A stretch of 64,000 nucleotides of DNA from Egibacter rhizosphaerae (GTDB lineage Bacteria; Actinomycetota; Nitriliruptoria; Euzebyales; Egibacteraceae): positions 434,001 to 498,000 of the forward strand of contig NZ_CP036402.1 in the NCBI RefSeq assembly GCF_004322855.1. The letters are read 5' to 3'. Position numbers and translations under genes: made by a program. Shown piece by piece: positions 25,120 to 30,101 of the stretch. The notes beneath the pieces were generated by a model. That model searched no databases and was not told where the DNA came from. It worked only from the letters and a program-made list of their open reading frames with translations. How positions within the stretch are numbered: the first letter of the stretch is position 1; every line of letters begins with the position of its first letter.

Positions 25120-25146
25120 TGTCACAGGAGCGGCGCCTGCGTCGTC
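25120..25146 (+). promoter_or_regulatory. Probable ECF41 sigma-factor promoter
   Basis: TGTCACA at 25120-25126 and CGTC at 25143-25146, separated by 16 bp, match the promoter motif known for ECF41 sigma factors. It lies about 40 bp upstream of the CMD-membrane gene start, which begins the operon ending with the ECF41 gene itself. This implies autoregulation. Confidence 0.7.
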
Positions 25147-25183
25147 GAGATGGGTAAAGGTCGCTTTCGACGGGAGGTGTGTG

Positions 25184-26239
25184 ATGCGGTGGGTGCGCGC
25201 AGGGTTGGCCGTGCTTGCGGTGGGCCAGCTGGTGCCGGGGATGTGGGCGCTGGCGGCGCCGCGGCACTTCTACGAGTCGTTTCCTGGGGTCGGGTCGGCG
25301 TGGGTGGCCGCCGACGGGCCGTTCAACCATCATCTCGTGGTCGACGCCGGGGCGGGGTTCGCCGCGACCGGCCTCGTCCTCGCCGTGGCCGTGTGGGTCG
25401 CGTCGCGGGCTGTGCGGGCGGTCGCCCTGGCCGGTTATCTCGTGCACGCGGTGCCGCACCTGGCCTATCACGTCGCGCATCCGCCGTTGCCGCTGGGCCC
25501 GGTCGAGCAGGCGCTGACGTGGCTACCGTTGGCCGGCGGAGTCGGACTCGCGGTAGTCCTGCTCCTCGTCATGGCGGTACGTAGCCCCCCCGCGCGCGCT
25601 TCTGCCCGCCCGGACTCCCGTCCCGGCGCCGGCCCAGTGCCTGCGCCGTCGAGGTCGGGTTTCTCGGGCGGTCGGATCTCCGGGATCGGAGGATCGCCCC
25701 GCAACCCGCTGCTGCGGCTGGGCTTCATCGCGGCCCGCCGGCGGCTCGGGGCGATCCCCGAGGCCTGGCGGGTCACCGCCCGGGTGCCCAGGGTCGCGTT
25801 GGCGCGGATGGCCGGCGACGCGGCGCATCAGCGGACCCGGCTCGCCCCGGCCAGCGTGGGCGCGGTCGCGCAGCTGCACGCCGCGACGCTGGTCGAGTGC
25901 GCGTTCTGCGTCGACATCGGCACTGCGGCCGCCGTCGACGCTGGGGTCACCCGCGAGCAGATCCGCGACCTGCCCCGCTGGCGTGACAGCGACCGGTACG
26001 ACGACGACCAACGGCTCGCGCTGTCCCTGGCCGACGCGATGACGGCCACCCCTGCAGAGGTGCCCGGCGACCTCGTTGACGCGCTCGTCACCCGCTTCGG
26101 CGCCGACGCGACCGTCGAGCTCGCCACCGCGGTGGGCCACGAGAACGCCCGCGCCCGGACCAACCGGGCGCTCGGTGTGCCCCCGCAAGGGTTCGCCGCC
26201 GCAGCCTCCTGCCCACTGCCCGAGCGGAGCCCGACATGA
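25184..26239 (+). CDS. Membrane protein fused to carboxymuconolactone decarboxylase (AhpD-like) domain
   Basis: This 351-aa fusion has, at residues 1-135, four hydrophobic helices (AGLAVLAVGQLVPGMWAL; GFAATGLVLAVAVWV; VALAGYLVHAVPHLAYHV; GVGLAVVLLLVMAV). A flexible Pro/Arg/Gly linker (135-170) leads to an AhpD/CMD domain with the redox pair CAFC (Cys239, Cys242) in TLVECAFCVDIGTAA. CMD-like proteins are the standard partners of ECF41 sigma factors; the membrane fusion is less usual and could make it a membrane-bound redox sensor. GGGAGG precedes ATG 25184. Its stop overlaps the sigma gene (ATGA). Confidence 0.85.
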   Translation: MRWVRAGLAVLAVGQLVPGMWALAAPRHFYESFPGVGSAWVAADGPFNHHLVVDAGAGFAATGLVLAVAVWVASRAVRAVALAGYLVHAVPHLAYHVAHPPLPLGPVEQALTWLPLAGGVGLAVVLLLVMAVRSPPARASARPDSRPGAGPVPAPSRSGFSGGRISGIGGSPRNPLLRLGFIAARRRLGAIPEAWRVTARVPRVALARMAGDAAHQRTRLAPASVGAVAQLHAATLVECAFCVDIGTAAAVDAGVTREQIRDLPRWRDSDRYDDDQRLALSLADAMTATPAEVPGDLVDALVTRFGADATVELATAVGHENARARTNRALGVPPQGFAAAASCPLPERSPT

Positions 26240-27087
26240 CGGGCGTGTTCGAGGCCGAGCGCGACCGGCTGTTCGCGATCGCCTACCGGATGCTCGGCAG
26301 CGTCGCCGACGCCGAGGACGTCCTCCAGGACGTCTGGCTCGCCTGGCAGCCCGTCGACCACCCAGAGGTGGCACGACCGGCCGCCTACCTCGCCCGGATG
26401 ACCACCAACCGCTGCCTCGACACGCTGCGCGCCGCCCGCCGCCACCGCGAGGCCTACGTCGGCCCGTGGCTGCCCGAACCGCTGCTGGCCACCGGCGACG
26501 CCGACGACGACGATGCCGAGCTCGCCGACTCGGTGCGCATCGCCTTCCTCGTCGCCCTCGAGTCCCTCTCCCCCGCCGAGCGCGCCGCGCTGGTGCTCCG
26601 CGACGCGTTCGGCTACCCCTACGACGAGCTCGCCGGCATCCTCGACCGCAGCGAGACTGCCTGCCGCCAGGTCGTGGCCCGCGCTCGACGCCACGTCCAA
26701 GCCCGCCGACCCCGCCAATCGGCCAACCCCGCCCACGCCGACGAGGTCGCTGCCCGGTTCCTCGCGGCCGCCCGCCACGGCGACCTCGACGGCCTCCTCG
26801 CCGTCCTGCACCCCGACGCCGAGCTCGTCAGCGACGGCGGCGGCAAGGCCAGCGCGGCCCGCCGCACCGTCACCGGCGCCGACCCCGTCGCCCGGTTCGT
26901 CGCCGGCATCGCCGCACGTCAACCCGACGCCGAGTACCGGCCCGTCCTCGTCAACGCCGCGCCCGGCGCGATCATGACCACCGCCGAGGGCCCCACGGTG
27001 ATCAGCATCGACATCGACGGCGAGCGGGTCACCCGCATCCACGTCATCCGAAACCCCGACAAGCTCACCCACGTACACCCTTCCTGA
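26236..27087 (+). CDS. ECF41-group RNA polymerase sigma factor with SnoaL-like extension
   Basis: This 283-aa sigma factor has sigma-2 (residues 1-70), sigma-4 (105-160) and a C-terminal SnoaL/NTF2-like domain. It carries all three ECF41 signatures: WLPEP (78-82) in the linker, DGGGK (200-204), and NPDK (273-276). In this group no classical anti-sigma factor is used; the C-terminal extension controls activity. It is translationally coupled to the CMD fusion and probably drives the promoter at 25120-25146. Its inducing signal is unknown. Confidence 0.93.
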   Translation: MTGVFEAERDRLFAIAYRMLGSVADAEDVLQDVWLAWQPVDHPEVARPAAYLARMTTNRCLDTLRAARRHREAYVGPWLPEPLLATGDADDDDAELADSVRIAFLVALESLSPAERAALVLRDAFGYPYDELAGILDRSETACRQVVARARRHVQARRPRQSANPAHADEVAARFLAAARHGDLDGLLAVLHPDAELVSDGGGKASAARRTVTGADPVARFVAGIAARQPDAEYRPVLVNAAPGAIMTTAEGPTVISIDIDGERVTRIHVIRNPDKLTHVHPS

Positions 27088-27590
27088 GCCCCCCGACGAC
27101 CTCACTCCGGCTCGGCTGACGGTTGGCGATCCCGTCGACCCTCGACGGCCCCACCGAGGGCACGCCCCCGCACGCGAGCAGCCTCGGCTCAACCGGAAGA
27201 GCCGACGTGCCCGAGGTGGATCGACCGTGCTGGAGCCTGCCATGCCCGACCACCCCCTCGGCGAAGCGCTGGCCGCCACGGTCGCGCTCGAGGCCGCCAC
27301 CGGCGCCGCCTGGCCCGCTGAAGACAGCGCCGCGCCTGCACCGGTGATCGGGCGACGGTTCGCGCGCGCCCACCGCCTTGCCCTGCAGTGCGCCAGTGAG
27401 CCGTTCGCGGATCGTCCGCTTGGCGGGGATCTTGCGGACCTTGACGAATCCGCCATAGCCGCCGAGTGCGCGACCGAGAATCCTGACCACCGGTGAACCC
27501 CTTCCCGGAAGGCGCCGCGTGGACCCTGCCCCGCACCGCCCACGAAGATCCTCGACAGACCTCTGGCCGGCCGGAATCCCTTGCGGGCCG
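27088..27590. other. Intergenic region without a supportable gene
   Basis: 503 bp between convergent genes. Open frames exist on both strands (for example minus 27065-27664), but none has a credible start, ribosome site or protein-like composition. It may hold decayed coding DNA; I see no clear structure. Confidence 0.4.
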
Positions 27591-27968
27591 TCACGCCGGA
27601 TCCGTCCGCGCGCTCCGGCCCCGGGCGCCGGCCAGCAACAGCGCCGGCAGCAGAAGCGCGACAACCGGCAGTACCAGCGCCCCCACGCTGAACCCTGTGA
27701 GCAGCGCGAAGCCGGCGGTGGTCGCCCATCCCATCCATGCAGCCAGCCACCTGCCCCGCACGATCCCCGTCATGAGCAGGGCCGCCGACGCGACGAACAC
27801 CAGCGCCTGTGGAGCGGGTCCCGACAACACGAAGGTCGGCTCGGCCGCAGACGCTTACGGAGCCGTCGCCGCGACCCGCCGTGCCGGTGCTCGCACCGCC
27901 GACATCAGCACGCCGTAGCTGGCGACCAGCCCACCGGCCGCCAGCGTCGCCCACCGCAGCCACCGCAC
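27591..27968 (-). pseudogene. Membrane protein gene with an in-frame TAA
   Basis: From GTG 27968 the frame begins with a membrane helix (RWATLAAGGLVASYGVLMSAV), meets TAA at 27857-27855, and then continues in the same frame with three further helices (ALVFVASAALLMTGIV; AAWMGWATTAGFALLTGFSV; ALVLPVVALLLPALLLAG). Without the stop it would encode a 125-aa four-helix protein. Two separate short proteins are possible, with a GTG at 27830 available for the second. It is downstream of the DUF6069-like gene on the same strand. Confidence 0.5.
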
Positions 27969-28042
27969 GCATCGTCCCTGCCTCTGGCGTCCCGGATCGT
28001 GCGGCCGTTGACCGAGCACCTCACCCGCCCTGCCGTGCGCAG

Positions 28043-28507
28043 TCACTCATGCACGGCCCGTTGCCTATGTACCACCGTGACCTTTGTTGCGGCTACCACA
28101 AAGGCGGCACCGGTCGTCACGTGCATCGTCGCCAGCAGCACGCCGGTCGCGGTGTCGTGGCCACCCGCCAGCGGACCGGCGGCCGATGCCACGGCGACCA
28201 CGCCCCCTACGGTCGCCAGCATGGTTACCCACCGGCGCGACCGCCGAGCAGCCAGCGCCAGCAGCGCCGCACCGGCGGCGAACGGGAGAAGGGTCGTCAG
28301 GAGCACCTTGACAACGCCCACCTCCAGGTCCGGCTCGCCGATGGCTGGGTCCACGACGAAGCTGGCGTCCGCTGCACCTCCGATCGCCCACAGCGACACG
28401 TTGACCACGATCGCCGCCGCAGCGCCGACGGTCGTAGCTCTGACGACCGCGGGGTTCCGGGGACCGCTACTCGTTGGTGATGAGGTGATCGTTGAAGCTG
28501 TCTCCAT
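28043..28507 (-). CDS. DUF6069-like membrane protein
   Basis: This 154-aa protein has a short Ser/Thr-rich N-terminus and four membrane helices (VGAAAAIVVNVSLWAIGG; VVKVLLTTLLPFAAGAALLALA; MLATVGGVVAVASAAGPLAGG; MHVTTGAAFVVAA). The arrangement and the GHDTATGVLLATMH motif fit the DUF6069 group of actinobacterial membrane proteins, whose function is unknown. GGAGGAG lies upstream of the ATG. The gene probably leads a short operon with the TAA-containing membrane gene downstream. Confidence 0.7.
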   Translation of the reverse strand: METASTITSSPTSSGPRNPAVVRATTVGAAAAIVVNVSLWAIGGAADASFVVDPAIGEPDLEVGVVKVLLTTLLPFAAGAALLALAARRSRRWVTMLATVGGVVAVASAAGPLAGGHDTATGVLLATMHVTTGAAFVVAATKVTVVHRQRAVHE

Positions 28508-28628
28508 GGTCTTCTCCTCCGGGAGAGGCCGGTGCGTGCGACCGAGCGCCGCAAGGTCTTGCGGTCCCCCTTCTCCCCATACGACGTCGCAGCCGGTCCG
28601 AATGTGACACCGCCCCGAGCAGCAGCGC

Positions 28629-29252
28629 TCATCCGACGAACGCGCCGACCAACAGGCCGATGATCTGCGGCGCGAATGCGGCGAGCAGCCCGCCGGCCAC
28701 CCCGAGGAAACTCGCGACAACGGCAAGGGTGCCCCCACCCCGCCGCCTCAAGTACGACCAGCTCGCCAAGAGGAACAGGATCCCACCGAGCGCGAACCAC
28801 GGTCCCCAGACGACCCCGTACCACCAGGCCTCGCCCTCGAGCGGATCGACGGTGACCAGAAAGCTGAGGTACTGGCCACCGTGCGCGGCGAGGAGCGCGC
28901 CCGCGCCGCAGGAGGGGAGCAACAGGAACGCCGGGGGCACCGCCTGGCCGCCGACCCCCGGGAGCACGCGTGGGAAGACAGCGCCCCAAGCACGCACGAG
29001 CGCGAGCCCGAGGACCGTGCCGACCGCGAGCATGACCGTTACCCACCACAGGGCTGCCAAGACCCCTGGATCGCGGGCAGCGGCGGCAGCCTGGAGCCCT
29101 TCCGAGATCGTCCCGAGGCCCACGGTTCCTCCGAGCGCCCAGTAGAGACTGCGAATCCCGAACGCGGCGGCCCAGAACGCCGCCGCATAGCCCGCCCAAC
29201 GGTCGATGGCCGGGAGGGCTCGGCGCTGCTGCTCGCGAAGGCCTCGACCCAT
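28629..29252 (-). CDS. DUF3995-like membrane protein
   Basis: This 207-aa protein starts with a basic segment (MGRGLREQQRR), then five membrane helices. The first contains WAGYAAAFWAAAFGIRSLYWALGG, cited here only by its key residues Trp, Tyr, Arg, Tyr-Trp-Ala-Leu-Gly-Gly, which recall DUF3995 proteins. AGGAAGGGG precedes the ATG at 29252. Role unknown. It is followed by about 120 bp before the DUF6069-like gene, so co-transcription is possible. Confidence 0.65.
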   Translation of the reverse strand: MGRGLREQQRRALPAIDRWAGYAAAFWAAAFGIRSLYWALGGTVGLGTISEGLQAAAAARDPGVLAALWWVTVMLAVGTVLGLALVRAWGAVFPRVLPGVGGQAVPPAFLLLPSCGAGALLAAHGGQYLSFLVTVDPLEGEAWWYGVVWGPWFALGGILFLLASWSYLRRRGGGTLAVVASFLGVAGGLLAAFAPQIIGLLVGAFVG

Positions 29253-29510
29253 CGGGTGCCCCTTCCTGCTACTCGCACCGAGCCCCGGGTCCCCGTCTGA
29301 TGAGGGAGACCTCGATGGCGGAGGCCGACTGCGGTCTAACATCCCTCGCCAGAGGCTGCGAGGTTGGACCGAACAGCCAGGCGGGCCCGAGAGCAGGTAA
29401 GGGTGCTCACCGTCAGTAGTGGATGCCGGGCCTTGCGACAGCACCCTCCCGAGCGGCGATGATAGCGGCTGACGTTGCGCGTTTGAACTCGTCCGCATCG
29501 TGGAGGTGCT

Positions 29511-30101
29511 ATGCCCAACCCGGATCCCAAGGCCGACTTGCACCGCTACCTCCAGGTGGCCCGTGACGCGCTGCTGTGGAAGCTCAACGGCGTATCGGAA
29601 TACGACGTTCGCCGCCCGCTAGTGCGAACAGGCACGAACCTACTTGGGCTCGTCAAGCACCTGGCAGGGGTCGAGGCGGGTTACTTCGGCGCGGTCTTCG
29701 ATCGCCCGTTCACAGAGTCGCTGCCCTGGATGGACGACGAGGAGCCGAACACGGACATGTGGGCGACGGTCGAGGAGTCCCGAGACGACATCGTCGCCCT
29801 CTATCGGCGGGTCTGGACCCACGCTGACGCCACCATCGACGCGGTCGATTTGAGCACGGTTGGGTTCGTTTCCTGGTGGCCGGAGGACCGGGCGCGAGCC
29901 ACGCTGCACACAATCCTCGTCCATGTGACCACCGAGAGCCACCGGCACGCCGGACACGCCGACATCGTTCGGGAACTGATCGACGGTGCCGTCGGGCACA
30001 GGCTGGGTGTCGACAATCTCCCAGACGTCGACCACGCGTGGTGGATGTCCCACCACGAGCGGCTGAAGCAGGTGGCACGGCAATTCGAAGGGCTCGGCTA
30101 A
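29511..30101 (+). CDS. DinB/DUF664-family protein
   Basis: This 196-aa four-helix-bundle protein of the DinB superfamily shows the metal-ligand histidine in LLGLVKHLAGVEAGYFG near residue 50 and a second cluster in ILVHVTTESHRHAGHADIVRE near residue 145. DUF664 members are thought to be thiol-dependent (mycothiol or bacillithiol) transferases. A canonical GGAGG stands before the ATG. It is monocistronic, divergent from the DUF3995-like gene. Confidence 0.85.
   Translation: MPNPDPKADLHRYLQVARDALLWKLNGVSEYDVRRPLVRTGTNLLGLVKHLAGVEAGYFGAVFDRPFTESLPWMDDEEPNTDMWATVEESRDDIVALYRRVWTHADATIDAVDLSTVGFVSWWPEDRARATLHTILVHVTTESHRHAGHADIVRELIDGAVGHRLGVDNLPDVDHAWWMSHHERLKQVARQFEGLG

What the first reader, a model, noticed from the sequence alone, without database searches (positions are those of the whole stretch)
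25120..27087. ECF41 operon with its own promoter and a membrane-CMD fusion
The sigma factor has the ECF41 signatures WLPEP, DGGGK and NPDK. A TGTCACA-N16-CGTC motif lies upstream of the operon. Its partner is a four-helix membrane domain fused to an AhpD-like CAFC domain, which could tie membrane or redox state to the sigma factor.
Basis: partly seen in the sequence, partly recalled or inferred. Interest (0 to 1): 0.6.

Follow-up and report, generated by a model that had tools for sequence, protein, structure and literature searches.

The report
ECF41 sigma-factor operon with membrane-enzyme fusion
A self-regulated stress-type sigma-factor operon whose enzyme partner is fused to a small membrane protein; the same promoter also sits in front of separate, conserved membrane-protein genes, so this sigma-factor family probably controls a scattered set of membrane proteins rather than only its neighbouring gene, as reported until now.

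Summary
Window 25120-25146 is a perfect ECF41-type promoter (TGTCACA-N16-CGTC) 37 bp before a fusion gene (four transmembrane helices plus an AhpD/CMD domain with CAFC). The fusion gene overlaps a true ECF41 sigma gene (over the SigX4 and SigJ model cut-offs; WLPEP, DGGGK, NPDK present).

The window holds 2 copies where shuffles give 0.05. All five exact copies in the 4.6-Mb genome lie before ECF41 operons or small membrane-protein genes; one precedes a lone paralogue of the fusion's membrane domain, 36 kb from the nearest ECF41 gene. The motif persists in relatives while its flanks diverge (9-11 of 11 core bases against 30-51% of flanks).

The membrane domain neighbours ECF41 in several actinobacterial families, Thermomicrobiales and Bacteroidota. 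DUF6069 follows an 80%-identical ECF41 gene in a relative.

Best reading: fusion and DUF6069 are outputs of ECF41, not its sensor, probably membrane-placed redox or detoxification proteins induced when the SnoaL_2 domain is relieved. New variant of a known system; transcription and biochemistry are untested.

The parts
25120..25146 (+). ECF41-type promoter: -35 TGTCACA (25120-25126), 16-bp spacer, -10 CGTC (25143-25146)
   Evidence: Exact match; same core before the fusion orthologue in G046 with only 34% flank identity; consensus from PMC3426412
25172..25177 (+). ribosome-binding site gggagg, 6 nt before ATG 25184
   Evidence: sequence; the gggaggtg...gtgatgcggtgg stretch is kept in G016
25184..26239 (+). 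membrane-CMD fusion gene (351 aa)
   Evidence: fusion orthologue in G046
25184..25579 (+). four-helix membrane domain (aa 1-132); remote DUF4345/DoxX-like; H50, D54, H92, H96 invariant in 42 homologues
25700..26203 (+). AhpD/CMD domain (about aa 173-340), PF02627
25898..25909 (+). CAFC, the CxxC of the CMD domain (aa 239-242); the AhpD His four residues after the second Cys is Gly here
26236..27087 (+). ECF41 sigma factor gene (283 aa), sigma2 + sigma4 + SnoaL_2
   Evidence: PDB 5xe7 SigJ, E 1.2e-52
26467..26481 (+). WLPEP linker signature
26833..26847 (+). DGGGK signature in SnoaL_2
27052..27063 (+). NPDK signature
28583..28609 (-). second ECF41-type promoter: -35 TGTCACA (28603-28609), -10 CGTC (28583-28586)
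   Evidence: exact match; core kept 9-11 of 11 before four DUF6069 homologues while flanks are 36-51% identical to the window's
28043..28507 (-). DUF6069 small four-helix membrane protein, predicted second target
   Evidence: PF19545 60.7 bits against cut-off 27.2; four-helix model; synteny with ECF41 in G016 and G035

Best explanation
This is an autoregulated ECF41 unit. The ECF41 protein is held inactive by its own SnoaL_2 domain (established for other ECF41s, inferred here). When that domain is relieved by an unknown small-molecule signal, the sigma factor drives TGTCACA-N16-CGTC promoters. In the window these are the fusion-ecf41 operon and the DUF6069 gene. Elsewhere in the genome they are the other ECF41 operons (CMD or epimerase plus sigma), a lone copy of the membrane domain, and a second DUF6069 gene. 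Which of the six ECF41 paralogues serves which promoter is unknown, but synteny in G016 and G035 points to the neighbouring ECF41 for DUF6069. The fusion is an output: a four-helix, DoxX/DUF4345-like anchor that holds a CxxC thiol enzyme at the cytoplasmic face of the membrane (topology inferred), to reduce or detoxify something dissolved in or next to the membrane. Shown by computation: promoter conservation, linkage, domain make-up. Inferred: transcription, signal, topology, chemistry.
For: ECF41 identity. Promoters: 2 exact sites in the window against 0.05 expected; all 5 exact sites in the genome precede ECF41 operons or membrane-protein genes; counting sites with 1-2 mismatches, all six ECF41 loci, the lone TM gene and both DUF6069 genes carry the motif. 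Footprint: core 9-11 of 11 against flank identity 0.30-0.51. Linkage of the TM family to ECF41: 10 of 80 homologues in named genomes (5 Spirosoma, Hymenobacter, Thermomicrobiales, Rubrobacteraceae, Aeromicrobium, Agromyces) and 11 of the 30 best loci in a 396-genome phylum sample. DUF6069 linkage: G016 has motif-ECF41-motif-DUF6069, G035 has DUF6069 then CMD-ECF41, and an ECF41-like tail precedes the 873-kb copy. CMD fold and CxxC.
Against: No transcript data. Many TM homologues (notably all the Nocardia ones seen, roughly half of the 80) have no ECF41 or motif nearby, so the membrane domain has uses outside ECF41 control. TM-CMD fusions in G303, G313 and a Solirubrobacterales genome lack an ECF41 in the DNA held. 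The two DUF6069 copies in this genome are paralogues, so not fully independent, and the subfamily was found in only four genomes. The AhpD proton-relay His is absent, so peroxidase chemistry is doubtful. The DoxX-like fold match (Z 11.1) stands little above unrelated four-helix proteins (9.7).
Confidence: 0.68

Rival explanations
1. The fusion is a regulator (sensor or co-anti-sigma) of ECF41: the membrane domain senses an envelope or redox signal and the CMD domain passes it to the SnoaL_2 domain.
For: Operon with ATGA overlap; fusion and ECF41 kept together in G046; SnoaL_2 needs some input.
Against: Lone TM paralogue and Spirosoma TM genes carry their own motif; G016 keeps ECF41 and promoters with the fusion deleted; CMD partners in B. 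licheniformis, R. sphaeroides and S. meliloti are targets without signalling role (PMC3426412, PMC6180224); fusions occur without ECF41 in the held DNA.
Confidence: 0.15
2. A plain ECF41-CMD unit in the sense of the 2012 description, with a neutral membrane anchor; the DUF6069 and lone-TM promoters are chance or leftover sites and the sigma factor has one target.
For: Characterised ECF41s had a single target operon (PMC3426412, PMC6180224); the backwards control pattern gives 3 hits in this genome.
Against: All five exact hits fall at promoter positions; core conservation against flank divergence for DUF6069 in four genomes and for the TM gene; adjacency of DUF6069 to ECF41 in G016 and G035.
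Confidence: 0.15
3. The lone-TM and DUF6069 promoters belong to another ECF sigma factor with a similar -35/-10 preference, not to ECF41.
For: The genome has many other ECF factors (28 stretches match the ECF41 profile at E <= 0.001); CGTC -10 elements are common among ECF factors (PMC3426412).
Against: TGTCACA is reported as specific for ECF41 (PMC3426412); DUF6069 sits directly after an ECF41 in G016.
Confidence: 0.07

Closest known systems
ECF41 group (B. licheniformis Ecf41Bli-YdfG, R. sphaeroides RSP_0607-RSP_0606, S. meliloti RpoE9-SMb20029, M. tuberculosis SigJ)
   Same: SnoaL_2 extension, WLPEP/DGGGK/NPDK, COE gene upstream in an operon, TGTCACA-N16-CGTC promoter before the COE gene
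   Different: The CMD is fused to a four-helix membrane domain; extra promoters lie before unlinked or separate membrane-protein genes, whereas the characterised cases have one target operon
AhpD/CMD family; nearest solved structures Atu0492 (2gmy), PA0269 (2o4d/2ijc/7xw1), debrominase Bmp8 (6ohi)
   Same: helical fold, CxxC pair
   Different: lacks the His four residues after the second Cys that 2gmy and PA0269 have (Gly here); membrane-fused
DoxX-like / DUF4345 membrane proteins; NACHO/TMEM35A (9h9e)
   Same: four transmembrane helices; 25 of 42 aligned members hit DUF4345, 4 hit DoxX_2
   Different: The window protein itself has no Pfam hit there; it carries its own invariant set W21, W40, H50, D54, H92, H96
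DUF6069 (PF19545)
   Same: over the family cut-off
   Different: this subfamily carries ECF41-type promoters; the distant members examined do not have the exact motif upstream

Membership tests
ECF41 sigma factors | sigma2 and sigma4 domains | tested here: met
   PF04542 53.9 bits, PF08281 47.3 bits, both over cut-off
ECF41 sigma factors | C-terminal SnoaL_2 domain | tested here: met
   PF12680 29.7 bits against 27; SigJ structure matched over residues 4-278
ECF41 sigma factors | YVGPWLPEP linker and DGGGK/NPDK motifs | tested here: met
   positions 74/78, 200, 273; motif role from PMC7730460 and PMC3426412
ECF41 sigma factors | COE neighbour and TGTCACA-N16-CGTC promoter | tested here: met
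   (sequence only; activity not tested)
ECF41 sigma factors | activity controlled by its own C-terminal domain, no anti-sigma factor | not testable with these tools
   needs reporter assays
ECF41 sigma factors | only one target operon (conclusion of PMC3426412) | tested here: inconclusive
   predicted extra targets; no expression data
AhpD/CMD | CMD domain with CxxC | tested here: met
   PF02627 32.4 bits against 23; CAFC 239-242
AhpD-type peroxidase | His of the proton relay after CxxC | tested here: not met
   Gly in the window; Leu or Ala in two other fusions; Gly in the ECF41-linked CMDs examined except the 1851-kb copy
DoxX-like / DUF4345 | profile match of the membrane domain | tested here: inconclusive
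   window protein has no hit; 25 of 42 aligned members hit DUF4345 (best E 6.9e-7), 4 hit DoxX_2
DoxX-like / DUF4345 | shared four-helix fold | tested here: inconclusive
   NACHO/TMEM35A Z 11.1, 117 residues, rmsd 3.2; unrelated tetraspanin 9.7
DUF6069 | PF19545 over cut-off | tested here: met
   60.7 bits against 27.2

The most novel reading that the evidence does not exclude
ECF41 factors control a conserved, dispersed membrane regulon (DoxX/DUF4345-like and DUF6069 proteins) in more than one phylum, and the fusion is a transmembrane redox device: an outer-face site built from invariant H50, D54, H92 and H96 coupled to a cytoplasmic CxxC domain.
Probability: 0.2. Interest if true: 0.72.

Novelty: new variant of a known kind. 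Interest (0 to 1): 0.5.

Why it matters
ECF41 is among the most widespread sigma-factor groups with a built-in regulator, yet its signal and physiological role are unknown, and it was concluded to serve only a neighbouring enzyme gene. A recurrent membrane partner found with ECF41 in Actinobacteria, Thermomicrobiales and Bacteroidota, with its own ECF41-type promoters even when unlinked, narrows the guess to membrane-located redox or detoxification chemistry. It also supplies new reporter promoters for finding the signal.

Tried and rejected
Exact N17 variants of the motif (1891235, 2032628) were not pursued: one falls inside predicted ORFs, the other has no candidate gene within reach. Most other one-mismatch hits lie inside coding sequence or have no fitting gene. 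Class-wide exact hits: 18 of 55 inspected precede ECF41, epimerase, TM or DUF6069 genes; the rest look like background. Distant DUF6069 homologues (30-35% identity or weak profile hits) show no exact motif upstream, so the link is to one subfamily. CMD-only sequences misaligned with the fusion in A3 and were left out before folding. Foldseek on the DUF6069 model gave nothing meaningful. No paper in the library joins ECF41 with DoxX or mentions DUF6069. The 2021 ECF re-classification is not held, so its neighbourhood tables could not be checked: the TM-ECF41 link may be listed there.

Full report
Observation. The finding is real and correctly placed. TGTCACA-N16-CGTC lies at 25120-25146. The fusion gene starts at ATG 25184 behind gggagg and ends at 26239; the sigma gene starts at 26236 inside the fusion's last codons (ATGA), so translational coupling and one transcript are likely (sequence). 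The sigma factor is over the cut-offs of TIGR02957 (SigX4) and NF007214 (SigJ), has SnoaL_2, and matches the SigJ structure 5xe7 from end to end. WLPEP, DGGGK and NPDK are present.

A second site. The window holds a second exact motif at 28583-28609 on the minus strand, 75 bp before the start of a DUF6069 gene (28043-28507). Two exact sites occur in none of 100 shuffles (mean 0.05). In the whole 4.64-Mb genome the exact N16 motif occurs five times: before this operon, before DUF6069, before a lone homologue of the fusion's membrane domain (1814738-1815175, 58-62% identical, about 36 kb from the nearest ECF41 gene), before an ECF41-CMD pair (1852 kb) and before an epimerase-ECF41 pair (2187 kb). 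With one or two mismatches, the remaining ECF41 loci (380, 897 and 1491 kb) and a second DUF6069 gene (873 kb) also have it. The control pattern (the motif read backwards) gives 3 exact hits in this genome, so presence alone is weak evidence; position and conservation carry the argument.

Conservation. G046, another family of the same class, has the full unit: exact motif, fusion (54% identical overall), ECF41 (58%). In G027, G028 and G029 the order is exact motif, NAD-epimerase, separate membrane gene, ECF41; G059 has the same order with a one-mismatch motif. DUF6069 homologues in G016, G035, G053 and the 873-kb copy all have TGTCAC(A/G)-N16-(C/T)GTC upstream; core identity is 9-11 of 11 while the flanks are 33-51% identical. 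The same holds for the fusion and lone-TM promoters (11 of 11 against 30-35%). G016 carries motif-ECF41 (80% identical)-motif-DUF6069 (75-78%) in a row, and its fusion gene is cut down to its first three codons joined to the last ones (one metagenome contig, so misassembly is possible). G035 has DUF6069 then CMD-ECF41. The 873-kb DUF6069 is preceded by what reads as an ECF41 C-terminal remnant (...VRHPDKLVHVV*).

Wider survey. A scan of 84,980 named genomes gave 116 relatives of the membrane domain, 80 kept; 10 have an ECF41 within the held 4 kb, including five Spirosoma and one Hymenobacter (Bacteroidota), a Thermomicrobiales genome, Rubrobacteraceae, Aeromicrobium and Agromyces. In all five Spirosoma loci TGTCACA-N16-TGTC lies between the ECF41 gene and the membrane gene. 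In 396 genomes of the phylum, 59 have the domain; of the 30 best loci, 11 have ECF41 adjacent, some as ECF41-...-TM-CMD with separate TM and CMD genes. TM-CMD fusions without ECF41 in the held DNA occur in G303, G313 and a Solirubrobacterales genome. Roughly half of the 80 named-genome loci are Nocardia and none of these has ECF41 or the motif. The association is therefore frequent but not obligatory.

The fusion protein. AlphaFold2 (42 sequences, mean pLDDT 82) gives four confident helices, a disordered linker at 133-172 and an AhpD-type domain. The second half matches AhpD-like structures (Z up to 15.8) and the debrominase Bmp8. CAFC is kept, but the His four residues after the second Cys, seen in 2gmy and PA0269, is Gly here and Leu or Ala in two other fusions, so classical AhpD peroxidase chemistry is not assured. 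The membrane half has no Pfam hit itself; 25 of 42 aligned members hit DUF4345 and four hit DoxX_2, and NACHO/TMEM35A is the best fold match, only modestly above unrelated four-helix proteins. Invariant H50, D54, H92 and H96 fall at the ends of helices 2 and 3 that would face outward if the N-terminus is inside; loop charges fit that topology (inference).

Mechanism. Established elsewhere: the SnoaL_2 domain restrains ECF41 through the WLPEP/NPDKL contact, and CMD partners are targets (PMC3426412, PMC7730460, PMC6180224). Inferred here: the fusion and DUF6069 are outputs, part of a small membrane-directed regulon.

Novelty. The ECF41 unit and its promoter are known. New relative to the papers available here are the membrane-CMD fusion as partner, the recurrent TM-ECF41 pairing across phyla, and conserved extra promoters before unlinked membrane genes; PMC3426412 concluded that ECF41s generally control a single gene or operon. 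The 2021 re-classification could not be read, so part of this may already be tabulated. Class: new variant of a known kind.

Noticed in passing
G000:C1:896503-897323 (L199:2013-2827): An ECF41 paralogue is split by a frame change exactly between sigma4 and the SnoaL_2 domain (one TGA); its CMD-ECF41 promoter is intact. Sequencing error, decay or a separated sigma core cannot be told apart.
   Followed up: partly
window 27490-27990 (-): Between the ECF41 and DUF6069 stops the minus strand reads as a small membrane protein with an in-frame stop, probably a decayed gene; DUF6069 is inverted relative to the order in G016.
   Followed up: partly
window 28632-29261 (-) and 29511-30101 (+): A DUF3995 membrane protein and a mycothiol-S-transferase (PF04978, 152 bits) lie next to DUF6069; a thiol-detoxification neighbourhood would fit the proposed role.
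   Followed up: no
L076 and other Nocardia loci (L069-L109): Many Nocardia encode the membrane domain 1.3-3.3 kb upstream of a CMD gene with CxxC and no His, on the same strand, without ECF41 or the motif; their regulator is unknown.
   Followed up: partly
L189:3880-4020 (G016): The fusion gene is reduced to ATGCGGTGG joined to the CMD tail, with promoter and ECF41 intact: a natural deletion or a misassembly.
   Followed up: partly
L235 (G303), L249 (G313), L131 (Solirubrobacterales): Membrane-CMD fusions with no ECF41 in the held DNA, so the fusion is not tied to ECF41.
   Followed up: partly
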